Virus record (IMG/VR): IMGVR_UViG_3300031675_000586
Coordinates: 1 to 35,325 of that record
Reading direction: 5' to 3' (one strand)
Origin: a virus
DNA: 35,325 nt
Below are positions 432 through 28,854 of this stretch, piece after piece. Both the position numbers and the translations under genes were made by a program. Under the pieces are notes generated by a model. The model was given only the letters and a program-made list of their open reading frames with translations. It was not told where the DNA came from and did not search any database. Positions within the stretch are counted from its first letter, which is position 1. Each line of letters opens with the position of its first letter.

Positions 432-450
432 AACATAAACTCCTGTTACA

Positions 451-460
451 ACTATTTATC
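451..460 (-). promoter_or_regulatory. T4-type late promoter element (GATAAATAGT)
   Basis: Read on the minus strand the bases are GATAAATAGT, one base from the T4 late consensus TATAAATA. It lies about 20 nt upstream of the ATG at 431, with an AGGAG between. Similar GATAAATA or TATAAATA elements precede several other genes here. Confidence 0.55.
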
Positions 461-2434: not shown

Positions 2435-3190
2435 ATGTCCAGAAGAGCAAGAAAGCAAAAGTGTAACAAATATAGAAACAAAGACCACAATAACAAAGGA
2501 GAACATTTGAGACTAATACAAGGCGGAGCACCGCTAGAAAGAATTAGAAATAAGAAAGTAACAATAACACCACGTAACTTCCATCAAGACGACCTCATAG
2601 GACTACTGGAAGACAAAAACATTAATATAGTTTTTGCAGTAGGACCAGCAGGCACAGGTAAAACCATAGTATCAACATTACAAGGCATTAAGTCGCTTAA
2701 AAACGGCGACTGCGATAAGTTTGTAGTAACGAGACCAGCAGTCTCAGTTGATGAACAACATGGATTCTTACCAGGAACACTACAAGAAAAAATGGCACCT
2801 TGGACCCGGCCAATATTTGATGTGTTCGAAGAATTTTATTCACCAGAACAGATAGACTACATGTTAAATGATAACAAAGTAGAGATAGCACCATTGGCAT
2901 ATATGAGAGGACGAACGTTTAAGAATTCTTATATTATTGCAGATGAAATGCAAAATGCTACAGATAGTCAAATGAAAATGTTACTAACAAGAATAGGAGA
3001 TAACAGTAAGTTAGTTGTAACAGGCGATTTGGCTCAGCATGATCGAGGCTTTGAAAGTAATGGACTTAAACTGTTTATTGAACGTTTAATAGCATCTAAG
3101 TCTGACCGTATTAAATTAGTGCAATTTAGCAATGAGGATATTGAAAGACATCCTGTTGTTAGCGAAGTGCTAAAGCTATACGACTTTTAG
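2435..3190 (+). CDS. phoH: PhoH-like P-loop ATPase
   Basis: Encodes 251 residues on the plus strand. Walker A is GPAGTGKT (residues 70-77), with Walker B YIIADEMQN around 166-174. TRPAVSVDEQHGFLPG and VVTGDLAQHD are further typical PhoH segments. The N-terminal 30 residues are very basic (MSRRARKQKC). The start follows a GGGAGAG ribosome site. PhoH-like ATPases are widespread in marine phages; the family is ATP-binding with proposed RNA or phosphate-stress roles, but the phage function is not settled. The gene is divergent from the porin and its 3' end overlaps the convergent radical SAM gene by 15 bp. Codons and base composition match its neighbours. Confidence 0.93.
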   Translation: MSRRARKQKCNKYRNKDHNNKGEHLRLIQGGAPLERIRNKKVTITPRNFHQDDLIGLLEDKNINIVFAVGPAGTGKTIVSTLQGIKSLKNGDCDKFVVTRPAVSVDEQHGFLPGTLQEKMAPWTRPIFDVFEEFYSPEQIDYMLNDNKVEIAPLAYMRGRTFKNSYIIADEMQNATDSQMKMLLTRIGDNSKLVVTGDLAQHDRGFESNGLKLFIERLIASKSDRIKLVQFSNEDIERHPVVSEVLKLYDF

Positions 3191-4630
3191 CATTTGAACT
3201 TTTTTTAAATCGATGTAACTCTGGATATGGAGCTCTGGGGTTACATTACCTAAAGAATCTTCGCACATTTTTTCCCAAGGATCTTTGGGTAACCCTTTTT
3301 TCTTTACACCCTTAGAATACATTCGCTTGGCTACTAGTTGTGCTGTATCATAATCACATTCTTCGTGAGAGAAATTAAAGATGGTGGTTACATTGTCATC
3401 TAACACCCTCTCTTCTCTTACATTAATTCCAAACTTCTCAGGATACTTCACAAAGTCAGAGGCATGCTCTATTCTACCATAGCCAACGTTTCCTAATTGC
3501 AATGGGATTATTGATAAGTCTGCTAAATCATTGTCGTGTATGTAATTAATAGATTCTATAGCATATTCAATTGGTTCTTTTGGTAAGCCCATTATGTGTG
3601 TTGCATACCTATGCCAATGAGGATATGTTTCCTTTATGTAATGCATGTTATCAAAACCTTTTTCTCTTGTCATTTTTTTCTTAATGGCTTTACTTGCCTC
3701 AGGATGGAATGTTTCCGTACCCCAAAACTGATAATGCACTCCACCTTTGTCTAGCAATGTCATTTGTAGCTTCTTTGCTACTAATACATCAAATCTAATA
3801 AATGCTGTTATCTTTGGTTGGTAGTCAAGTTGCTCAACCGCTTCTACTAAGTAATGTAGCTTTGTATCATCTTCGTTAAGAGTATCGTCTGCACAATTAA
3901 AATGTGTTACTCCGTATTCTTCTTTTGCTGTTTTAAAGAAGTTAAATAATGCATCAGCACCAGCATCATGTGTTTTCTTAGCATTACGGAATTCAAAAGA
4001 ACAAAAACTACAATTAAACTTACATCCTAATCTAGTTTCAAAAGTTACTACATCGGTCGGTTGTAAACAGTAGTCATCAAATAGTTTACTTACAATAGGC
4101 ATCTCAACTAAGTCAGCTTCGTTTTTGGGTCTGTAAATTGATACACCATTGTACTGGTATGTTAAACAGTCGTTACTTATAGGTAAACCATCTATCCAAT
4201 GCTCAAACAAGTGTATTGACCTACCCATAAACATTAAGTCTGGTACTAACTCTTCAAATAAAAACTCGTTATCAGGCCCGCCAATTATAAGTGTTATGTC
4301 ATATTTTTGCTTTAATTCTTTTATTACTTTATAAGCAACTGTGCTACTGTTGAGCAAGTCAGTGTTAAAAAGTGTGCTACAAAGCACTAGAGGGCGTCTA
4401 ACAGCGTGTTTAGTACACCATGCTACTATATGTTCTAGTAGTGTATCGTTATCCCAAAACTCAACATAGTTTATTACAGTACTAGGAATGTCTCTTTTTA
4501 CAAACAGTTCATTTAGTGCAAACGGAGCCAACGGCCGTATAATAATACCAGTATTTGACGCACTATATGTTTGTGGTTTTTTTGTGTTAGTTAACTCTAG
4601 GATTAGAGCACTATCAAATATGTTTGACAT
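3176..4630 (-). CDS. Radical SAM protein, paralogue 1
   Basis: Encodes 484 residues. The radical SAM cluster motif is GCKFNCSFC (C203, C207, C210), which binds a [4Fe-4S] cluster for cleaving S-adenosylmethionine. The N-terminal 150 residues resemble a B12-binding-type Rossmann domain (LIIGGPDNE, FMGRSIHLF) but have no DxHxxG cobalamin motif. After the cysteines come strands typical of an Elp3/MiaB-like TIM barrel (THFNCADDTLNEDDTKL, HIMGLPKEP). It shares this order with the adjacent 4990-6453 gene, so the pair arose by duplication. Its substrate is unknown; peptide, tRNA or small-molecule modification are possible. The neighbouring gene in the operon (4634-4966) has no recognised function. 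Confidence 0.85.
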   Translation of the reverse strand: MSNIFDSALILELTNTKKPQTYSASNTGIIIRPLAPFALNELFVKRDIPSTVINYVEFWDNDTLLEHIVAWCTKHAVRRPLVLCSTLFNTDLLNSSTVAYKVIKELKQKYDITLIIGGPDNEFLFEELVPDLMFMGRSIHLFEHWIDGLPISNDCLTYQYNGVSIYRPKNEADLVEMPIVSKLFDDYCLQPTDVVTFETRLGCKFNCSFCSFEFRNAKKTHDAGADALFNFFKTAKEEYGVTHFNCADDTLNEDDTKLHYLVEAVEQLDYQPKITAFIRFDVLVAKKLQMTLLDKGGVHYQFWGTETFHPEASKAIKKKMTREKGFDNMHYIKETYPHWHRYATHIMGLPKEPIEYAIESINYIHDNDLADLSIIPLQLGNVGYGRIEHASDFVKYPEKFGINVREERVLDDNVTTIFNFSHEECDYDTAQLVAKRMYSKGVKKKGLPKDPWEKMCEDSLGNVTPELHIQSYIDLKKVQMLKVV

Positions 4631-4633
4631 AAT

Positions 4634-4966
4634 CTACCTGATCTTGCGAATCTGGTAGTCGAATGGTTCTACTGTTTTAATCTCAAACGGTTTGCCAAAT
4701 ATATCTTTGCCTACGATCCAATTTGGTTTCTTTTTAGTAATTTTTTTGAGGATAAACGTTTTCTGTGTACGTCTAATAGTTTTGTTACCTCTGTCGGTAA
4801 ACTCTGTTTCATTATGAAACCATACTATTAATTCATACTCGTCTATAAATATGGATATAATCCATTCCCACAGTCTTTTATACCAAGGCAGACGTTTTAC
4901 GGCAACATGAATTTCTTCAACTTGCGGTGCGGATTTCTGCTTTTTCTTTGTTGGTACTTCAGCCAC
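4634..4966 (-). CDS. Conserved hypothetical protein between the radical SAM genes
   Basis: Encodes 110 residues with a Lys-rich N-terminus (MAEVPTKKKQK), an amphipathic/hydrophobic patch WYKRLWEWIISIFIDEYEL (about residues 28-46) and a C-terminal motif KDIFGKPFEIKTVEPFDYQI. I recall similar small proteins in marine T4-like phages, always of unknown function. The gene has a late-promoter-like GATAAATA at 4994-4987 and an AGGAG ribosome site. It splits the two radical SAM genes and may be expressed later than they are. The tryptophan-rich segment could sit on a membrane surface or at a virion interface. Confidence 0.8.
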   Translation of the reverse strand: MAEVPTKKKQKSAPQVEEIHVAVKRLPWYKRLWEWIISIFIDEYELIVWFHNETEFTDRGNKTIRRTQKTFILKKITKKKPNWIVGKDIFGKPFEIKTVEPFDYQIRKIR

Positions 4967-4986
4967 TGTGTTCTCCTATGTAGTAG

Positions 4987-4994
4987 TATTTATC
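4987..4994 (-). promoter_or_regulatory. Late promoter element GATAAATA
   Basis: GATAAATACT on the minus strand, 20-28 nt upstream of the ATG at 4966. It overlaps the 3' end of the upstream radical SAM gene. Confidence 0.55.
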
Positions 4995-6453
4995 TTGTTG
5001 ACATCCAGTTGGACTTGTTCTTGATATACTTTTTAACAATTTTATTACGAATTTGGTTTGTTAGAGTATATTTTGTATTATAGCTTTGCCACTTCTCATC
5101 AGGTAGTAGTGCCTGTAGTCCAAATATTTCATGAGAAGTAAACTTTGACGTTAAGTTATCACCTAAGTAAATATCAACTTTAGCTGATAATTCTTCAGCA
5201 CTAGCTGAGTTAGACCAGTCGTTCTCCCAAAGTTGAGAACTATACCCAAGGTCTCGATATTCTTGATCAGTACCAATAATTTCGTAGCCAAACTTTTTAG
5301 GGTCCTTGTCCATGTCACTTTCAACATCAGGATTTTCTAAATTGCTAAACAATCTCAATGTATTACAACCTGCTGATGTCAGCAGTTGTTCATCTATAAT
5401 TATGTCGCAACTGTTTAATATACTCGGTTCATCATCCCCTGTTAATCCTATAATGAAATTGCCATATGTAAATGCTTCTGGATAATTATCTCTTACTAAT
5501 CGTAGAGCTGATAACATTCTTTCAGGCTTGCCACCTTTGCGTATTAATTTTGTAACGCCTGGAGTCATACTTTCTATGCCAAAAAACATGCTGTTAATAC
5601 GAGCTTTCTTTAATAGTTCAATTTGATGAGGTTGAGCACCTAGTACATCAACTCTAACAAATGCCATGTAGTTAGGTTCAAAGTCTAGTTGTTCGTTAAC
5701 TCTAGCTAACAGCTCTAACTTTGTATCAACTTCATTAATAGTATCATCTGCTAATACAAAATTAGTAATGCCAAAGTCAGTGTATGCACTTTGTATACTT
5801 TTAAACAGTTGTTCTTCATCTATTAACACAGGGTTCTTGTTGTTTCTAAAGTCGTAACCACAGAAGCTACAATTAAATTTACAACCTAATGCTAGTTCAA
5901 TAGTGTGCGTTTCTCTACTATCCCAAAAGTCTTCTTTTTTGAGTATAGGAGCAACAGGCGTTTCAAGTATCGTTCCATGTGGGTTCTTATATGTTGTTGG
6001 TCTAGCAGGACCTTTATCTGTATAAATAATAAATTCTGATATGTCCTCTCCTGTCATCCATTTAATAAATATATTACTGCTACGTCCAATGAATGCCATG
6101 TCTACCCAACTGTCTTCTCCTACTGGAACACGGTAGCCACCAAGTATTACTTTAAGTAGAGGTATTTCTTTTTTTAGTAAGTGTACTAATATTTTAAATT
6201 CGTCTGTGCTACTTCCATCAATAGAACCACTTAGTCCTATCCAAGGTTCTTGCTCATCTCCAAACCATGCTACAATTGAATCCTTAATTAAATCAATATC
6301 CCAATCACGCCAGTAGTCAATGTTGGTTGCTTCTATGCCGAGGTTGTTAGCAGTTTGTACAATGTGTAATGCACCAGAGGCTCTACTATTATTTTTTAAC
6401 AGGCCGCCTCTGGTAGGTTTTGAACCTAGGTCAGATAAAAGTAAGAACTTCAT
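4990..6453 (-). CDS. Radical SAM protein, paralogue 2
   Basis: Encodes 487 residues with the cluster motif GCKFNCSFCGYDFRNN (C191, C195, C198). The N-terminal domain (KFLLLSDLGSKPTRGG, KVILGGYRVP, AFIGRSSNIFI) is B12-binding-like but lacks a DxHxxG motif. The barrel includes FVLADDTINEVDTKLE and FFGIESMTPG, as in Elp3/MiaB-type enzymes, and parallels the 3176-4630 protein along its length. Its ATG shares one base with the stop of the clamp loader gene (TAATG), so translation is probably coupled. The tight link to gene 44 places it with replication genes; the substrate cannot be inferred. Two such enzymes would raise demand for Fe-S clusters, matching the assembly genes further right. Confidence 0.87.
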   Translation of the reverse strand: MKFLLLSDLGSKPTRGGLLKNNSRASGALHIVQTANNLGIEATNIDYWRDWDIDLIKDSIVAWFGDEQEPWIGLSGSIDGSSTDEFKILVHLLKKEIPLLKVILGGYRVPVGEDSWVDMAFIGRSSNIFIKWMTGEDISEFIIYTDKGPARPTTYKNPHGTILETPVAPILKKEDFWDSRETHTIELALGCKFNCSFCGYDFRNNKNPVLIDEEQLFKSIQSAYTDFGITNFVLADDTINEVDTKLELLARVNEQLDFEPNYMAFVRVDVLGAQPHQIELLKKARINSMFFGIESMTPGVTKLIRKGGKPERMLSALRLVRDNYPEAFTYGNFIIGLTGDDEPSILNSCDIIIDEQLLTSAGCNTLRLFSNLENPDVESDMDKDPKKFGYEIIGTDQEYRDLGYSSQLWENDWSNSASAEELSAKVDIYLGDNLTSKFTSHEIFGLQALLPDEKWQSYNTKYTLTNQIRNKIVKKYIKNKSNWMSTR

Positions 6454-7445: not shown

Positions 7446-7474
7446 ATTATACTACCTTTTTAAGTTGTTGTCAA
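7446..7474 (-). promoter_or_regulatory. Sigma70-type promoter of gene 44
   Basis: TTGACA (7474-7469), 17-nt spacer, TATAAT (7451-7446), minus strand. The -35 box overlaps the stop codon of the upstream oxygenase. Expected start near 7440-7438. Confidence 0.82.
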
Positions 7475-8109
7475 GAGTATTTAGGCGAATCGGGGACCAT
7501 GTACTTATATTTTTCGGGTATGTTTCCAATATTAATATAATCTTCGCCTAACCCAAAAAATGCTTGTATTGTAATTCTTTCATGTGTTACTTCTTCTACT
7601 CTGTGTAAAGCACCTTGAGTTGCTTCTGGATAGCAATCAAGTATTCCGCAGTTGTAGTTAGGTGCAATAGAATGTCCGTTCTCTTGGTTAGTGTCCTCGT
7701 CTTCATACCAAACAAAGTTACCTCCCCATTCTGGTTTCCATTCTTTGTTAAGAAACAATGTCATTGAACCCCATGCATTGTCAGTGTGTGGAGGAAACTT
7801 TCCACCAGGTAGAAAATTATTAATACGCATAGGCAGTTCGCCTACAGTTCTAATCATTTTTTTGTTCTTGTAAAATGGTAAGTTTTCGTTGTTATATAAT
7901 TCTTCTATTATACGCAGTTGAAACTCTTTTGATAAATTAATAGTTGACGGAAGTACTGCTCTCCACTCCCCTACTAAAAATGCATCTACTAGTCCGTTAC
8001 CATATACGTTCCTGCTCATGTCAAGTATATTGCCGTAATAAAAGTCGTGCAACTCGTTAATCAGTTCTAAACTAAGTATGTTTTCGTAGTATGTAAACTT
8101 TTTATCCAC
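7471..8109 (-). CDS. 2-oxoglutarate/Fe(II)-dependent oxygenase
   Basis: Encodes 212 residues. The double-stranded beta-helix facial triad is visible: H108 and D110 in FPPHTDNAWGSMTLFL, H169 in GALHRVEEVTHERITIQAFFG, with R178 for the 2-oxoglutarate carboxylate. GGNFVWYED is the conserved core strand. This is a prolyl-hydroxylase-like (P4H) oxygenase; the target, protein or small molecule, is not evident. It is last of three tandem oxygenase genes, overlapping the previous one by 8 bp, and ends at the promoter of gene 44. This copy has the canonical HxD, whereas its two neighbours have HxE. Confidence 0.85.
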   Translation of the reverse strand: MDKKFTYYENILSLELINELHDFYYGNILDMSRNVYGNGLVDAFLVGEWRAVLPSTINLSKEFQLRIIEELYNNENLPFYKNKKMIRTVGELPMRINNFLPGGKFPPHTDNAWGSMTLFLNKEWKPEWGGNFVWYEDEDTNQENGHSIAPNYNCGILDCYPEATQGALHRVEEVTHERITIQAFFGLGEDYINIGNIPEKYKYMVPDSPKYS

Positions 8110-8845
8110 TAGTTAACCTCTCAATGATCTCTGAATTCTCTTTCTCCCAGATCCTCATTGTAGGCATCATTTCAAGAACGCCTGGAGTTTCTAAGTACCC
8201 AGTTACTAATGCTTTATTTGTTTGTTGTTTTGCTGTATTAGTGTAGTCACTGTTTTCAACGGGTATTGATCTACCAACTGTGTTGTCATTTGGAACAGTT
8301 CCGAGCTCTACAAAGCCAGGTCCAAAAAACATTTGTACAGCATATCTATCTGTATTACTTTTATTAATTTGTACACAATGGAATGGATTAAAAATTGGAT
8401 ATAAATCGTTTACAATAAACAATGATCCATTGTTTCTTTTAATAGGAACAATAATTTCATCACCGTCTAAGATATCATCATTATCATCATCTGTATCATA
8501 CCAAACAAAGTTAGGAGCAGGATTATCTTCTGACCAATCCTCGTCGTCGTTGATACAAATGGTTAACACACCGTATGTTTTTTCACGATGCAAAGGTAAC
8601 CAACTTCCAGGAACAAACCTCTGCATATACATATGATGATCTCTCATCATTTTATTACAGTGGTATGTAGGTAAGTCTATATTGTTATATAATTCTTCTA
8701 GAATTTCGTTATGTATGTCATCTGGGAAGTAACAAAAGAATCTGCCAAAGCCTCGGTGGGTCCATTTAATATCATCAGACATGTATGTTTGCTGTAATTT
8801 TACAAGCAAGCCTTCTGATAGATAGTTATTGTATGAACGGAACAT
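8102..8845 (-). CDS. 2OG/Fe(II) oxygenase-like protein with HxE motif
   Basis: Encodes 247 residues. The expected metal motif appears as H86-R-E88 (WLPLHREKTYGVLTICIN), with a distal H156 in FHCVQINKSNTDRYAVQMFFG and R167. FVWYDTDD matches the core strand of the downstream oxygenase. Glu in place of Asp in the HxD motif occurs in a few active members but may also mark altered activity. A 70-residue tail follows the fold (GRSIPVENSDY to IWEKENSEI). It is clearly a paralogue of 8846-9562, sharing HRGFGRFF, HMYMQRF and SWLP-HRE, and is adjacent with no gap. Function unknown. Confidence 0.72.
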   Translation of the reverse strand: MFRSYNNYLSEGLLVKLQQTYMSDDIKWTHRGFGRFFCYFPDDIHNEILEELYNNIDLPTYHCNKMMRDHHMYMQRFVPGSWLPLHREKTYGVLTICINDDEDWSEDNPAPNFVWYDTDDDNDDILDGDEIIVPIKRNNGSLFIVNDLYPIFNPFHCVQINKSNTDRYAVQMFFGPGFVELGTVPNDNTVGRSIPVENSDYTNTAKQQTNKALVTGYLETPGVLEMMPTMRIWEKENSEIIERLTSG

Positions 8846-9562
8846 TTAGCCTTCCAAGTGGTTTATTATATCTGCATGGTCTTTATTAAATTGTGTGCTT
8901 ACATCAGACAGTCCTGGTGATCCAGGAACTTCTAATAGTCCTGACAGTAATGATTTTACTGTGTAATTTTTATTGGAGTCTGCGTAATTTTCAAAGTTGT
9001 TTTCAGTGTTTCTATATGCTGGTCCAGACCCACCTGGTCCATAAAATATCTGTAAGCAATATCTATGTACAGATGATTTGTTGAATTCTACTTTATGATA
9101 TGCAGTGAATTCAGGAGTTTTATGTTCCGGTGTTATTGAATATGTACCCGTGTTACAATGTATAGGGAAGGCATGCGTATGGTTGTCGAGATCTTCTAAA
9201 TCGTTTGTATCATAATATACAAACTTTGGTTGTGGTTGTCCTACCCAGTCACTATCAGGATTTATGTATATAGTTATAACACCATAACACTTTTCTCTAT
9301 GCACAGGTAACCAGCTCTCAGGTATAAACCTCTGCATGTACATGTGCTGGTTTCTCATTAACCATTTATCTTTGAATAAAGGATTGCCCGGGTCTGCTCC
9401 ATATAAATCATCGAGGACAAGGTTATGTTCTTCTTCAGTTAAGTAAGAAAAAAAGCGTCCAAATCCTCTGTGTTGCCAGTGAATATCGTCACGCATATAG
9501 TTTTTCTGAAGCATCTTCAAACTTTCTTCGGTGAGAAAGTTTGAATATTGATCAAACAGCAT
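8846..9562 (-). CDS. 2OG/Fe(II) oxygenase-like protein with HxE motif, paralogue
   Basis: Encodes 238 residues. The motif H88-R-E90 (SWLPVHREKCYGVITIYIN), distal H156 (AYHKVEFNKSSVHRYCLQIF) and R167 parallel the adjacent paralogue, and the N-terminal YMRDDIHWQHRGFGRFF is shared. It is the first of the three oxygenase genes in transcription order, with a GGAGG ribosome site and a late-like CATAAATA upstream (9594-9587). The Glu-for-Asp swap is preserved in both copies, which suggests function rather than decay. The target is unknown. Confidence 0.72.
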   Translation of the reverse strand: MLFDQYSNFLTEESLKMLQKNYMRDDIHWQHRGFGRFFSYLTEEEHNLVLDDLYGADPGNPLFKDKWLMRNQHMYMQRFIPESWLPVHREKCYGVITIYINPDSDWVGQPQPKFVYYDTNDLEDLDNHTHAFPIHCNTGTYSITPEHKTPEFTAYHKVEFNKSSVHRYCLQIFYGPGGSGPAYRNTENNFENYADSNKNYTVKSLLSGLLEVPGSPGLSDVSTQFNKDHADIINHLEG

Positions 9563-9586
9563 TACATTGCCTCCATGTGTAAAGTT

Positions 9587-9594
9587 TATTTATG
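9587..9594 (-). promoter_or_regulatory. Late-promoter-like element CATAAATA
   Basis: CATAAATAAAC on the minus strand spans the stop codon of the dehydrogenase gene, about 25 nt before the ATG at 9562. One base off TATAAATA. Confidence 0.4.
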
Positions 9595-10408
9595 ATTTTT
9601 CCCTACGTTTATTATTACTTTTAACAGCAGATTCTAGTATTGTAAGTGGATTCTTTTTTGCTGTTAACTTAGCATAGTATAATAATGCATTAGTGTCTTT
9701 AGGAAAACATGTACCTCCAAAACCAAATTTACCATCTGGTCCAGGCACTTGCATATGACTATCACCCATCCTATGATCACGTTGTAACATATCTGTAAAT
9801 TGTTCCCAAGAGCTGTTAGAACCACTTTCTGAAAATAGCTCATGTAGTTCATTAAAAAACGCAACCTTTGTTGCTAACCAACTGTTCACAGTATACTTCA
9901 ACATACTTGCTGTGACCATATCGGTTTTAAATGTTGGAACAACTTTTACTGAACTGTGTCTAACGTAAGCCTTTTCTACTACTTCACAGTCTCTCCATTT
10001 GCCACCTAGTATTTGCATATCAGGATTTATAAAGTCGTAATCTGCATTAGATTCCCTAAGGAACTCTGGATTGTAAACTATTTTTAATTTAAAGTCTTTC
10101 TTAAACTTAGTAAGATAGTAAGGAGTTATTGTACTTTTAACTACAACAATACCTTTATACTCTAACGCTTCTAATTTAGCAAGTGTTTCTCTTACAATAG
10201 AAGTATCAACATCCTGATGCGATTCTTCTTGTGGGGTAGGTACACATAAAAATGTAATGCTTGGTTCAGCATTAACTAGCTCTTCTAATAGCATACCATC
10301 TTTATGCTTGGGATCTACAATAAAACGCTTAACGTTTATATTAAAACCTTTCTCAACAGATCCGCCAACAAAGCCGCATCCAATAATCCCAAGTTTAAGT
10401 ACGCTCAT
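9590..10408 (-). CDS. UDP-glucose/GDP-mannose 6-dehydrogenase-like, lacking the C-terminal domain
   Basis: Encodes 272 residues. The N-terminal Rossmann motif is GIIGCGFVGGS (NAD binding). FLCVPTPQ, VVVKSTITP and YNPEFLRESNA match nucleotide-sugar dehydrogenases. The catalytic cysteine is C234 in FGFGGTCFPKD, with the central-helix lysine in MLKYTVNSWLATKVAFFNEL. The family normally runs to 390-450 residues; this protein stops soon after the cysteine and lacks the C-terminal nucleotide-sugar-binding domain, so it may be a minimal enzyme. It would make UDP-glucuronate-type sugars for surface glycans or glycosylation. It starts in a TAATG overlap with the preceding small gene. Confidence 0.85.
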   Translation of the reverse strand: MSVLKLGIIGCGFVGGSVEKGFNINVKRFIVDPKHKDGMLLEELVNAEPSITFLCVPTPQEESHQDVDTSIVRETLAKLEALEYKGIVVVKSTITPYYLTKFKKDFKLKIVYNPEFLRESNADYDFINPDMQILGGKWRDCEVVEKAYVRHSSVKVVPTFKTDMVTASMLKYTVNSWLATKVAFFNELHELFSESGSNSSWEQFTDMLQRDHRMGDSHMQVPGPDGKFGFGGTCFPKDTNALLYYAKLTAKKNPLTILESAVKSNNKRREKS

Positions 10409-18397: not shown

Positions 18398-19333
18398 TTA
18401 TCTCCTTAGATAGTTATCTAGTTTGCTCAACTCAGCATATCGGCCTGAGTCGAAAGGATGATCAAGATTGAACGGATTTGTACGTTTGTAAGTAGTACTC
18501 CTCACTCGGTCAGCGACCGCTTGTACAATCGCTCTATCTTCATCGGTTAATTTGTCCAACTCTACACCGCCTCTCAAAAGAGAAAACAATGCAATGTCGA
18601 ACTCTAAGTAACTAAAACCAAATTGGTCCTCGTCACCTTTTGCAATTCCCAATCCGTCTGTTGGTACTGCCTCCACAATAGAGTGTGGAACTCTGAGATG
18701 TTCTGCCAATGCAGGAACTTCCCAACTTTTTGTCAATGCTTGGATCGGTGAGACGTCACCTACATCACCATGCAATGTCCAAAATCCTGTAGCAAGTTCA
18801 CTGAAGTTATCAGTACTTGCAACTAAACCATTTTGACTACTAGCAATATCATATAAAGTTATCATTCGTAGCCTTGCTCTAATATTACCTTGTCTAACTA
18901 AATTTTCTGACAGTCCTCTATGGGTTGTATCAACAAACCCTTGATGTCTTTGCATGTGTATTATTGTGTTATCAAATAATGGTGTTAGATCTCTTTCGAT
19001 ACTAACATTTAACATCTTACTAAACTCTCTAGCTCTAGCTAACTCATCTTCGTCTTGATGGATTGGTAACATAACACCAATTACATTCCATCCTGCTTCT
19101 TTAAATAATAATGCCGTAACAGCACTATCTAGTCCACCACTGATACCTATTACTACATTTGAAATATTGTGTTGTGTTTTGTAGTCAATTAAATCAGTTA
19201 CTAGTTTTGTTTGCAGTGATTGAATTTCACTGTGAAAAACTCCAAATGATATTAGTTTGTTCAGTTGGTCTTCGAACCAAGGGCTTAATGCTGGATTACG
19301 ATTGTATCTTAATATGTCTGGTTGAATTATCAT
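18398..19333 (-). CDS. nadE: NAD synthetase (ammonia-dependent NadE)
   Basis: Encodes 311 residues. The ATP-pyrophosphatase loop is GISGGLDSA (SGGLDS at 65-70). The second signature TDNFSELATGFWTLHGDVGD and PTDGLGIAKGDEDQFGFSY match NadE, which converts nicotinate adenine dinucleotide plus ammonia to NAD. There is no glutaminase domain, so it is the ammonia-using form. A phage copy could keep NAD up during infection or counter NAD-depleting host defences; no other NAD-salvage enzyme of known phage pathways was found in this window. A late-like AATAAATA lies just upstream at 19351-19344. Confidence 0.93.
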   Translation of the reverse strand: MIIQPDILRYNRNPALSPWFEDQLNKLISFGVFHSEIQSLQTKLVTDLIDYKTQHNISNVVIGISGGLDSAVTALLFKEAGWNVIGVMLPIHQDEDELARAREFSKMLNVSIERDLTPLFDNTIIHMQRHQGFVDTTHRGLSENLVRQGNIRARLRMITLYDIASSQNGLVASTDNFSELATGFWTLHGDVGDVSPIQALTKSWEVPALAEHLRVPHSIVEAVPTDGLGIAKGDEDQFGFSYLEFDIALFSLLRGGVELDKLTDEDRAIVQAVADRVRSTTYKRTNPFNLDHPFDSGRYAELSKLDNYLRR

Positions 19334-25371: not shown

Positions 25372-25399
25372 ATTATAGCAAAAATATAGGATTAGTCAA
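25372..25399 (-). promoter_or_regulatory. Sigma70-type promoter, TTGACT-N16-TATAAT
   Basis: TTGACT (25399-25394) and TATAAT (25377-25372) with a 16-nt spacer, minus strand. It fires away from the plus-strand island at 25.4-25.7 kb. Confidence 0.78.
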
Positions 25400-25417
25400 C
25401 CTTTTCTTATAGTAAAC

Positions 25418-25443
25418 ATGCATTTAACCACCTTTAAATGCAT
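25418..25443. repeat. 10-bp perfect inverted repeat between divergent promoters
   Basis: ATGCATTTAA (25418-25427) and TTAAATGCAT (25434-25443) are exact inverted repeats with a 6-nt centre CCACCT. It sits between the sigma70 promoter at 25372-25399 and the plus-strand late element at 25479. It may be an operator or a hairpin. Confidence 0.65.
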
Positions 25444-25478
25444 ATTTATATGTTTTTTGCTGATATTTTACTCAAGAT

Positions 25479-25486
25479 GATAAATA
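25479..25486 (+). promoter_or_regulatory. Plus-strand late promoter element GATAAATA
   Basis: GATAAATAGTC on the plus strand, the same sequence as at 451-460, about 110 nt upstream of the small plus-strand gene. Confidence 0.55.
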
Positions 25487-25490
25487 GTCT

Positions 25491-25530
25491 TGTAACACAA
25501 CTGTAACAATAGTGTTGATTTACTGTAACA
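25491..25530 (+). repeat. Three TGTAACA repeats in the leader
   Basis: TGTAACA occurs at 25491, 25502 and 25524; the last two are longer (CTGTAACAATA). They lie just downstream of the late element, so would be in the 5' leader of the 49-residue gene. Confidence 0.5.
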
Positions 25531-25597
25531 ATACTCATTAGAGGTGACGTTCCAGAACACTTAGTTGCAATGTGATTACATTTTATAGGAGAATACA

Positions 25598-25747
25598 ATG
25601 GCGAAGCCACTAGGAATAGTAGCCATGTTAACTCAGTTCACAAAGAACTCGAAGGCATCGGTTATTCATCACTTTAATCAACTCGACTCTATTATGAAAG
25701 CTGGTAATGACAGCATCCATACATTAGTTCAGAAATCGTTGACATAA
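25598..25747 (+). CDS. 49-residue plus-strand small protein
   Basis: ATG at 25598, with AGGAGA 6 nt upstream, to TAA at 25745-25747. It reads MAKPLGIVAMLTQFTKNSKA, then SVIHHFNQLDSIMKAGNDS, and IHTLVQKSLT. It is basic, mostly helical, without a membrane segment. It lies alone on the plus strand in a minus-strand region, with its own late element and a terminator starting 3 nt after its stop. This arrangement, not the protein sequence, is the main support. Family unknown. Confidence 0.7.
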   Translation: MAKPLGIVAMLTQFTKNSKASVIHHFNQLDSIMKAGNDSIHTLVQKSLT

Positions 25748-25749
25748 AA

Positions 25750-25771
25750 AAAGGGCCTAAATTGGCCCTTT
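25750..25771. terminator. Bidirectional terminator between convergent genes
   Basis: AAAGGGCC (25750-25757) and GGCCCTTT (25764-25771) form a perfect 8-bp stem with a 6-nt loop. On the plus strand it ends in TTTCTTTAAT; on the minus strand the stem is followed by eight T in a row. It lies between the 49-residue gene and the convergent 25813-26568 gene. Confidence 0.88.
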
Positions 25772-25812
25772 CTTTAATCATTTAATATTTACTAAGTACT
25801 TGGTCCATTATC

Positions 25813-26568
25813 TCAATCCAGCAATCTCCCGGAGCCATCATGTGGCGGAGTTGATTGAACAAACTCATCACCATTATCTGAATCAAAATTATTCCAATCT
25901 TGCGAACTTTCTAACTTCTCTGTCAACGCCTCAGGATTTGCATTATAAGTATCATTCATATCTGCATTCATCTCATCACCTAAATGTAATTGGTCATTAT
26001 GTAAATGTGCTTCTGTTTCAAGTGCTTCTATATCGTCAGTATCAACTACTGGCGGATCAATTGGAGCGGCATCACTAGTAGTAGCGACTGCTGGGTCCAT
26101 AATTGGTTCTGCTGGCACAGGCATACGATGTTCATATGGTGCAGAGTCAACTGGTTGTGTAATATACTCTTCGAGAATTTTTGACGGTGCAACATACCAG
26201 TCGTTAGCATAATTGTTTGACCAATCATCTGCACTTTCGGCTACCCATACGTTACCTGAGTTAGGCAAGAATGACATGTCGGTGTTGTAGTTTGTAGATA
26301 TGTTGTTGTAGTCCCATGCATGATCGTTTGCGACCATCCATGCTTGACAGCATTCGTCCCAATACGCACCGGAGCCTAAATCTTCTGGACATGGATGAGT
26401 TGGTGTTGATGGATGTAAATAATCGCCTGTCACAGGAGCAACAAAGACTTCTTCGTATTCTGCTACAGGTTCGTTATGTGGTAAGTCCCACAATTGCATT
26501 TCTATTTGGTTAAGTTGTTCCCTAACGCCATGGATCATATCCATGATTGCTATTCTTGGATCTAACAT
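25813..26568 (-). CDS. Acidic hypothetical protein, possibly virion-associated
   Basis: Encodes 251 residues starting MLDPRIAIMDMIHGVREQLN. A helical N-terminus is followed by a long low-complexity acidic region with Asp/Asn/Trp/Pro (GAYWDECCQAWMVANDHAWD, ADDWSNNYANDWYVAPS) and a disordered C-terminus. Its late element at 26639-26632 and AGGAG ribosome site fit late expression. No domain recognised. Translation of the opposite strand looks structured in parts but lacks a start with a ribosome site. Confidence 0.75.
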   Translation of the reverse strand: MLDPRIAIMDMIHGVREQLNQIEMQLWDLPHNEPVAEYEEVFVAPVTGDYLHPSTPTHPCPEDLGSGAYWDECCQAWMVANDHAWDYNNISTNYNTDMSFLPNSGNVWVAESADDWSNNYANDWYVAPSKILEEYITQPVDSAPYEHRMPVPAEPIMDPAVATTSDAAPIDPPVVDTDDIEALETEAHLHNDQLHLGDEMNADMNDTYNANPEALTEKLESSQDWNNFDSDNGDEFVQSTPPHDGSGRLLD

Positions 26569-27240: not shown

Positions 27241-27653
27241 TGTTTCACCTCTATGTTGCTTTTCTCTAAAAATTGTTTACCTGAACCTTTTGCGGCTTCA
27301 TAATTTATATCGTAGTATACACTACTTATCCCCGCTTGGTGAATTAATTTAGCACATTCCAGGCAAGGAGTGTGGGTACAAAACAATGTTGCACCTTTAC
27401 TTGACTCTGTACTCTGTGCTACTTTGGCTATTGCATTAGTTTCTGCATGTAATACTTCTGGCTTTGTGTGGCTTTTAGTGTCAACTATGTATTCACACTG
27501 GTTAGACCAACCACTAGGCATACCATTGTACCCAATGCTAATGATCCTGTTGTCCTTAACAATAACAGCGCCTACTTGGGCTCTTTCGGCAGAACTTAAC
27601 TTTGCTGTTTCATAAGCAATGGCCATATAGTAAGGTATAAACTTACTTTTCAT
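27228..27653 (-). CDS. dCMP deaminase
   Basis: Encodes 141 residues. The zinc and catalytic motif is VLHAETNAI (H69, E71) with THTPCLECAK (C97, C100). SSAERAQVGAVIVKDNRIIS and GYNGMPSGW are deoxycytidylate deaminase features; T4 cd is the equivalent. It converts dCMP to dUMP for thymidylate synthesis. It overlaps the ketoacyl synthase gene by 11 bases and the NfuA gene by 13. The family is standard in T4-like phages. Confidence 0.95.
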   Translation of the reverse strand: MKSKFIPYYMAIAYETAKLSSAERAQVGAVIVKDNRIISIGYNGMPSGWSNQCEYIVDTKSHTKPEVLHAETNAIAKVAQSTESSKGATLFCTHTPCLECAKLIHQAGISSVYYDINYEAAKGSGKQFLEKSNIEVKQCQV

Positions 27654-28854
27654 ATTTGCTTACACTAACTGCAGAACTGCGTCCGCCAAATCCAAAACTT
27701 GTTTTCATTAGCCTATTGTATTCAAAGTGTTGTTTGCTGTCATATGTAAACGAAAAATGTGTGTTATCAAAAGGTTCTACTAATCCTGCATTGCCTGGAA
27801 TAAAGTTCTCGTTCATTGCCTCTGCACCTAGTACAAGTTCTATTAAACAACTAGCACCCATCATGTGTCCTACTTGTCCTTTGTTGCTGTATAACCACGA
27901 ATCCTTGTTAAAGTATTCTTTAAGAACATCATGTTCAATTGGGTCACCTACTGGTGTTCCTGTTGCATGTGCATTTATTACATTGTAGTCATCAACAGTT
28001 GTACCAGCTTTTTTCATTGCTTCTTCAATTGCCATCTTACCACCAGTACCTGCTGGGTCTGGTTGCGTAGGGTGATGTGCATCACTGGCAATACCAATAC
28101 CGTCAATTACCCAACGTATGTTTGCGCCACGCTTCTGTGCTTTTTCTAAAGGCTCGACAATCAAGTACACACTTCCTTCTCCAGGAATAATACCATCTCG
28201 GTCCTTGTCCCACGGAACACTCTTTGGTGTTTTTGAGTGGGCACCTAAGGCTTGGAAATAATATAGTGTTGTACTTGACGTCATGAAATCGGTTGCGCCA
28301 ACAATAGCACAGTCAGTACCTGTTTCCAAATACTTCTCTGCTGTTTGCAATGCTTGTACACCTGAGATACACGTTGCGGCAATTACACTTGCTGGTCCGT
28401 GTATTTTAAAATGTTCACTAATAACATTACTTACATATTCTTGTGCTGAATTTAATAATACTTTAGGGTGAATCTTTTTTCTACCATTAATTATGTCTGA
28501 TACCCAATCTAGTTCACTTATACATCCACCTTGAATACTGCCTACAAACACAGGGGTGTCATAGGGCAGAGTTATACCACTCATCTTAACTGCTTCATCA
28601 CAAGCAATTAAACTTGTAGTACAAATAGGATCGGAGTATCGCTGATCTCTGTCAGGTACTAAATCATCAATGTTTAAATCGTTATAGTTTGCATGAAATA
28701 TCTTTTCTAATTTCATTAATGGTGATGCAATAGGGTCGTCCTTAATTCTTGCATCTGCTAACGGCACCACCATATCTTTTAGATTTTGTATGTTGTCAGG
28801 TACATTATTTCCTAGTGGAGAAACTATCCCAACGCCTGTTACTGCCATTTTCAT
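27643..28854 (-). CDS. Beta-ketoacyl-ACP synthase (FabF/KAS II-like)
   Basis: Encodes 403 residues, the normal FabF length. The active-site cysteine is C162 in SVIAATCISGVQALQTAEKY; the histidines are H296 (VINAHATGTPVGD) and H330 with K325 (YSNKGQVGHMMGAS). The thiolase-fold start MKMAVTGVGIVSPLGNN and RDGIIPGEGSVYLIVEPLE also match. KAS II extends acyl-ACP with malonyl-ACP. A full-length phage version could change host membrane lipid chain length or make an acyl product; there is no adjacent acyl carrier protein. It is separate from the virion genes and close to other metabolic genes. This is an uncommon phage gene. Confidence 0.93.
   Translation of the reverse strand: MKMAVTGVGIVSPLGNNVPDNIQNLKDMVVPLADARIKDDPIASPLMKLEKIFHANYNDLNIDDLVPDRDQRYSDPICTTSLIACDEAVKMSGITLPYDTPVFVGSIQGGCISELDWVSDIINGRKKIHPKVLLNSAQEYVSNVISEHFKIHGPASVIAATCISGVQALQTAEKYLETGTDCAIVGATDFMTSSTTLYYFQALGAHSKTPKSVPWDKDRDGIIPGEGSVYLIVEPLEKAQKRGANIRWVIDGIGIASDAHHPTQPDPAGTGGKMAIEEAMKKAGTTVDDYNVINAHATGTPVGDPIEHDVLKEYFNKDSWLYSNKGQVGHMMGASCLIELVLGAEAMNENFIPGNAGLVEPFDNTHFSFTYDSKQHFEYNRLMKTSFGFGGRSSAVSVSKYEK

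What the first reader, a model, noticed from the sequence alone, without database searches (positions are those of the whole stretch)
25400..25812. Isolated plus-strand small gene with its own late element, repeats and terminator
In the middle of minus-strand genes lies a complete module: inverted repeat, GATAAATA element, three TGTAACA repeats, AGGAGA, a 49-codon gene and a bidirectional terminator. It is too short for usual gene callers. The design looks like a separately controlled regulator, anti-host peptide or RNA carrier. This is my best candidate for an undescribed element in this window.
Basis: partly seen in the sequence, partly recalled or inferred. Interest (0 to 1): 0.62.

Follow-up and report, generated by a model that had tools for sequence, protein, structure and literature searches.

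The report
Structured-RNA micropeptide cassette in marine phages
The short stretch is a real, self-contained phage gene cassette whose message starts with a conserved folded RNA and encodes a ~40-residue peptide; it recurs once per genome in dozens of uncultivated T4-like viral contigs but in no cultured phage or RNA-family database searched, so it is a new RNA and peptide family of unknown target.

Summary
The module is transcribed from a T4-type late promoter (GATAAATA). Its 5' leader folds into a ~90-nt bulged hairpin whose 5' arms are the TGTAACA repeats. A second hairpin starts at the G of the AUG and lies inside the first nine codons. A 49-codon ORF and a bidirectional terminator follow. 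The module occurs in 70 IMG/VR contigs (52 distinct versions), once per record, always with the frame open, and in no isolate phage, GTDB genome, Rfam or PHROG family searched. Both RNA hairpins covary strongly, with G·U rather than A·C variants, so the plus strand is the functional RNA. Codons 1-9 are constrained as RNA. Codons 10-end are constrained as protein (motif FDxxMKSG). The repeats are phased at 11 nt and persist in a hairpin-less variant. The cassette usually lies antisense to both neighbours, between an opposite-strand early promoter and a bidirectional terminator, and near-identical copies sit in unrelated neighbourhoods. Some relatives carry an extra secreted ~100-aa gene that was lost repeatedly while the short peptide stayed. 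Best reading: a late-expressed moron-like cassette with a cis-acting RNA leader and start-codon hairpin controlling a micropeptide. The binding partner and the peptide's target are unknown.

The parts
25372..25399 (-). sigma-70 promoter of the divergent neighbour (TTGACT-N16-TATAAT), start of the minus-strand operon upstream of the module
   Evidence: 11/12 match; the opposite-strand promoter is found at >=9/12 in 37 of 48 relatives
25418..25443 (.). inverted repeat ATGCATTTAA-CCACC-TTTAAATGCAT between the two promoters; not conserved with the module (only L077 shares it)
25479..25486 (+). T4-type late promoter GATAAATA
   Evidence: invariant ATAAATA in the aligned family
25491..25497 (+). repeat 1 TGTAACA (5' arm of outer helix)
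25502..25508 (+). repeat 2 TGTAACA, 11 nt after repeat 1
25513..25519 (+). degenerate repeat at +22 (TGTTGAT here, often TGTTGCA in relatives)
25524..25530 (+). repeat 3 TGTAACA at +33, pairs with GTTNC around a small CTC-ATTA-GAG hairpin
25491..25580 (+). structured 5' leader: long bulged hairpin with four covarying helices
25587..25592 (+). Shine-Dalgarno AGGAGA
   Evidence: conserved
25600..25624 (+). start-codon hairpin inside codons 1-9: GGC-GAA-NYC...GGN-NNAGUA-GCC, with a loop-E/sarcin-ricin-like GAA/AGUA internal loop
25598..25747 (+). 49-codon ORF, MAKPLGIVA...HHFNQLDSIMKAGND..., member of a new ~40-aa peptide family (motif FDxxMKSG)
25750..25775 (.). bidirectional intrinsic terminator shared with the convergent minus-strand gene 25813-26568

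Best explanation
It is a self-contained, relocatable late-expression cassette (moron-like) of uncultivated T4-like marine phages. Late-modified RNA polymerase starts a ~280-nt transcript just before the first TGTAACA (inferred from the promoter position). The 5' end folds into a ~90-nt bulged hairpin (shown by covariation). The start codon is followed at once by a small hairpin with a loop-E-like internal loop (helices shown by covariation; loop motif inferred from sequence). These two RNA elements act in cis (inferred): the 5' hairpin protects or marks the message and the start-codon hairpin is a translational operator bound by a protein, setting the amount and timing of a ~40-residue, usually basic peptide (coding shown by selection). 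The peptide's FDxxMKSG half is the core product, since it survives when the linked secreted gene is lost.
For: 70 contigs; model R1 hits 71 loci at >=58 bits and one strong copy in each of 50 records up to 340 kb. Covariation on the CM-fitted alignment: 84.8% of cells paired against 72.1% in shuffles, 239 both-side-change cells against 82, collapse when slid by one base; the unfitted MAFFT alignment agrees. G.U 108 against A.C 21 in the leader, 27 against 1 in the start hairpin, so the plus-strand RNA is selected. Codon-3 and codon-6 third bases covary (A-T, T-A, C-G, G-C; p=0.003 on distinct 27-mers), and 43/43 hits found by the leader alone carry the start motif. Codons 1-9 pN/pS 0.8 with suppressed synonymous change; codons 10-end pN/pS 0.41-0.58. 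ORF1 present in some relatives, absent in others, peptide retained. Bidirectional terminator and opposed early promoter.
Against: No transcript, protein or binding data. No phage or host protein was shown to recognise the RNA. Neither hairpin clearly sequesters the Shine-Dalgarno in the consensus fold, so repression would need a bound protein. Single-sequence stability is unremarkable for the window (z -0.84). The TGTAACA repeats persist without the hairpin in six contigs, which a pure RNA-hairpin function does not explain.
Confidence: 0.5

Rival explanations
1. Dual-function small RNA: the ~280-nt terminated transcript acts in trans (base pairing or protein titration through the repeat arms and loops), and the peptide is a second product.
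For: Single small transcript with its own promoter and terminator; strong RNA constraint; no downstream gene to regulate in single-ORF forms.
Against: RNA constraint is concentrated in the leader and start-codon region, as expected for control of this ORF. The coding half shows protein-type selection. Two-ORF relatives use the same leader for a longer mRNA. No Rfam sRNA match.
Confidence: 0.25
2. DNA operator array: the 11-bp-phased TGTAACA repeats just downstream of the late promoter bind a regulator on one face of the DNA and block or pause the polymerase; the RNA fold is secondary.
For: Repeats phased at 0/11/(22)/33 and kept in six variants without the hairpin; TGTAACA is specific to this module, not to late promoters in general; divergent early promoter next door.
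Against: Plus-strand-specific G.U tolerance and compensatory changes need RNA. An 11-nt period also suits an A-form helix. The two readings can coexist.
Confidence: 0.17
3. A mobile or replication/packaging DNA element (cruciform, recombination site) carrying a passenger ORF.
For: 78-90% identical modules sit among entirely different neighbours; orientation usually opposite to both flanks.
Against: No target duplication or recombinase was looked for beyond the near flanks, and none was seen; one copy per genome; G.U over A.C asymmetry; ordinary late promoter, SD and terminator.
Confidence: 0.05

Closest known systems
Downstream-peptide RNA / glnA motif (Rfam RF01704; glutamine-sensing class), PMC2864571
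   Same: Structured 5' UTR of cyanobacterial and marine origin followed by a conserved ORF of 17-100 aa; both RNA and coding constraint.
   Different: No Rfam match at gathering or relaxed threshold; different architecture (long bulged hairpin built on phased repeats plus a hairpin inside the CDS); phage late promoter; not seen in any of the GTDB genome contigs searched.
manA and wcaG motifs of T4-like cyanophages (PMC2864571)
   Same: Marine metagenomes and T4-like phages; putative cis-regulatory leaders.
   Different: Those precede metabolic genes; no match here.
T4 translational operators (gp43 hairpin with UAAC loop ~40 nt upstream, gp32 pseudoknot; start-site helices of e, soc, 49), PMC3014915
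   Same: RNA hairpins at or near the initiation region of phage messages.
   Different: Here UAAC lies in stem arms, not in a loop; the start hairpin lies downstream of AUG inside the CDS; partner protein unknown.
Phage morons (promoter-ORF-terminator inserts; discussed for T4-like phages in PMC1524935)
   Same: Autonomous promoter, one small gene and terminator, relocated between genes, often antisense to neighbours.
   Different: G+C not aberrant (0.358 against 0.368); late instead of sigma-70 promoter; conserved structured leader.
PeSL mobile regulatory cassettes of T4-type phages (promoter-early stem-loop; recalled from memory, paper not read)
   Same: Small movable transcription-signal cassettes in T4-like genomes.
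   Different: Those carry early promoters; this carries a late promoter, a gene and a covarying leader.

Membership tests
Downstream-peptide RNA (RF01704) | Match to the Rfam covariance model | tested here: not met
   gathering; E<=1
Downstream-peptide RNA (RF01704) | Structured leader followed by a conserved short ORF | tested here: met
Phage moron | ORF flanked by its own promoter and terminator, inserted between genes | tested here: met
Phage moron | Aberrant G+C showing recent foreign origin | tested here: not met
   module 0.358, window 0.368
T4-type late gene | TATAAATA-like late promoter in a T4-like genome | tested here: met
   GATAAATA; clamp loader gp44-like in the window; gp23 in 7 and terminase in 5 of 31 records. 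Late transcription itself not tested
T4 gp43 translational operator | Hairpin with UAAC loop upstream of the RBS | tested here: not met
   UAAC lies in stem arms
Loop-E / sarcin-ricin motif | GAA opposite AGUA in an internal loop closed by G-C pairs | tested here: inconclusive
   Sequence motif invariant (43/43); three-dimensional geometry not testable here
Known protein family (PHROG/Pfam) | Profile match for the peptide | tested here: not met

The most novel reading that the evidence does not exclude
A new class of phage RNA: an 11-nt-phased repeat array that works both as a DNA/RNA protein-binding ladder and as the 5' arm of a leader hairpin, coupled to a coding-region loop-E hairpin recognised by a ribosomal or phage protein, controlling a micropeptide that acts late in infection and moves as an autonomous cassette.
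Probability: 0.25. Interest if true: 0.8.

Novelty: new variant of a known kind. Interest (0 to 1): 0.62.

Why it matters
It is a previously undescribed structured RNA plus micropeptide family, found in dozens of uncultivated marine T4-like phages and invisible to gene callers and RNA libraries. The leader and start-codon hairpins offer a compact, testable system of translational control in large marine phages, and the repeated loss of the linked secreted gene points to the tiny FDxxMKSG peptide as the conserved product.

Tried and rejected
Chance ORF: rejected by conservation. Generic late-promoter downstream element: rejected; exact TGTAACA follows 43 of 91 late-promoter-like sites, and of the 48 sites classed as non-family the only exact one is the L065 family member. 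Known RNA family: no Rfam match. Isolate phages: no match for the DNA or the peptide, nor for the secreted ORF1 (29; 55 gives one insignificant hit). GTDB genomes: none. Nearest terminase-bearing isolates PA5oct and Phosso lack it. Alternative pairing of the P4 3' arm with AGUAGC: appears in a few minimum-energy folds, but the P4 arm covaries with repeat 3 while AGUAGC is invariant, so rejected as the conserved state. Amphipathic-helix peptide: not supported for the family; AF2 gives one helix of modest confidence. ORF1 fold: all-beta, no significant match. Upstream inverted repeat as part of the module: rejected. Literature searches gave no description of this element.

Full report
WHAT IS THERE. 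On the plus strand, between two minus-strand genes: GATAAATA (25479-25486), TGTAACA at 25491, 25502 and 25524, AGGAGA (25587-25592), an ATG ORF of 49 codons (25598-25747) and a two-way terminator hairpin (25750-25775). A minus-strand sigma-70 promoter for the upstream neighbour lies at 25399-25372, and an inverted repeat sits between the two promoters. ORF length alone is not evidence (8% of shuffles).

RELATIVES. The peptide found five loci in IMG/VR. A pattern on the promoter and repeats only gave 88 stretches, and a pattern on the start codons gave 70. These reduce to 52 distinct versions. None was found in 50,697 phage records, in 84,980 GTDB genomes, in Rfam or in PHROGs/Pfam. Each of 50 records searched whole holds one strong copy, up to a 340-kb contig. 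The carriers are T4-like: the window has a gp44-type clamp loader, 7 of 31 records show a gp23 capsid (one of these, L054's record, carries the hairpin-less variant) and 5 of 31 a terminase. The one carrier terminase compared is closest, at 55.6% identity, to Pseudomonas phage PA5oct and its kin; PA5oct lacks the module. That the contigs are mostly marine is my reading of the collection and of their neighbours; sample metadata were not available here.

THE LEADER IS A STRUCTURED RNA. Folded one by one, most of the versions give the same long bulged hairpin from repeat 1 to just before the Shine-Dalgarno. On an alignment not fitted to structure, 74 cells show both-side changes that keep the pair, against 34 in shuffles, and pairing falls from 84.5% to about 40% when the partners are slid by one base. 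On the model-fitted alignment the figures are 239 against 82, with 27 of 35 pairs changed on both sides (fitted alignments lean towards the structure, so one search is the cleaner figure). G.U outnumbers A.C 108 to 21. That asymmetry is expected if the plus-strand RNA, not a DNA palindrome, is selected.

THE START CODON CARRIES A SECOND HAIRPIN. Codons 1-9 (ATG GYG AAN YCN NNN GGN NNN GTA GCC) form GGC:GCC and NCC:GGN helices around GAA and AGUA, the sequence signature of a loop-E/sarcin-ricin internal loop (geometry not tested). The third bases of codon 3 and of the Gly codon covary through A-T, T-A, C-G and G-C (p = 0.003 over distinct 27-mers). All 43 versions found by the leader pattern alone have the same start motif, so the invariance is not a product of the search. 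G.U to A.C here is 27 to 1. The window's own version has a G/A mismatch at the covarying pair.

THE REST IS A PEPTIDE. Codons 10 to the end show pN/pS 0.41-0.58, whereas codons 1-9 show 0.8 with few synonymous changes. Consensus: M-A-[KN]-[PS]-L-G-I-V-A ... Y-F-x-K-F-D-x-x-M-K-S-G. The net charge is usually positive (mean +2.8, range -1 to +8). AlphaFold gives one helix at modest confidence.

A TWO-GENE FORM EXPLAINS THE ORIGIN. In L002, L005, L016, L036, L065, L068 and L096 the same start leads into a ~100-124-aa protein with a signal peptide, followed by a separate 26-27-aa ORF such as MKKAWKKFDALMKSGRITNVANLVGVK. L012 has the same layout with a shorter first ORF. The single-ORF peptide of the window joins the first codons of ORF1 to an ORF2-like end (inferred from the alignment). 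In another group (L046, L051, L091 against L010, L019, L054) ORF1 is present or absent while ORF2 remains. Direction of loss is inferred. ORF1 has an all-beta fold without a significant match.

THE REPEATS ARE PHASED. Across the family TGTAACA peaks at 0, 11, weakly 22, and 33 nt, and the same holds in six contigs without the hairpin. Exact TGTAACA is not a general feature of late promoters in these phages. So the repeats have a role beyond pairing, perhaps as DNA or RNA protein-binding sites.

PLACE IN THE GENOME. With ORFs of at least 85 aa as neighbours, both flanks are on the opposite strand in 35 of 41 cases, and three of the six exceptions look like spurious antisense frames. An opposite-strand sigma-70 promoter scores >=9/12 in 37 of 48 (no background rate was computed for that scan). 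A clear terminator hairpin is seen in most single-ORF versions. Modules 78-90% identical sit among unrelated neighbours, for example L014 and L024, so the cassette moves between operon boundaries.

MECHANISM AND NOVELTY. Shown: RNA constraint, coding constraint, single copy, relocation, autonomous signals. Inferred: late expression, cis control by the two hairpins, a protein partner. By function it resembles leaders that control short ORFs (Downstream-peptide, PMC2864571) and phage translational operators (PMC3014915), but it belongs to none of these by test. By layout it is moron-like, though with ordinary G+C; PMC1524935 notes that most novel ORFs of T4-like phages do not look like morons. 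I call it a new variant of a known kind: a new RNA and peptide family in a known category of control element.

Noticed in passing
L046, L010, L019, L051, L054, L091: A second group of phage contigs carries three TGTAACA repeats at the same 11-nt phasing after ATAAATA, without the leader hairpin, driving the secreted ORF1 and/or the 22-28-aa peptide; here the upstream gene is on the same strand.
   Followed up: partly
window 444-459 (-): A second ATAAATA-N2-TGTAACA (single repeat) upstream of the minus-strand ORF at 3-431; not part of a hairpin leader (R1 finds one copy in the window).
   Followed up: no
window 3176-6453 (-): Two adjacent radical-SAM proteins of ~485 aa; the one at 3176-4630 has no relative among isolate phages.
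   Followed up: partly
window 27643-28854 (-): Beta-ketoacyl synthase with N- and C-terminal domains in a phage contig, an unusual auxiliary metabolic gene candidate.
   Followed up: no
window 7471-10408 and 18398-19333 (-): 2OG-Fe(II) oxygenase, UDP-glucose/GDP-mannose dehydrogenase and NAD synthetase genes.
   Followed up: no
window 25418-25443; L077 2082-2097: Identical inverted-repeat core TTTAACCACCTTTAAA between the early and late promoters in the window and in L077 only; possible operator of the divergent early promoter.
   Followed up: partly
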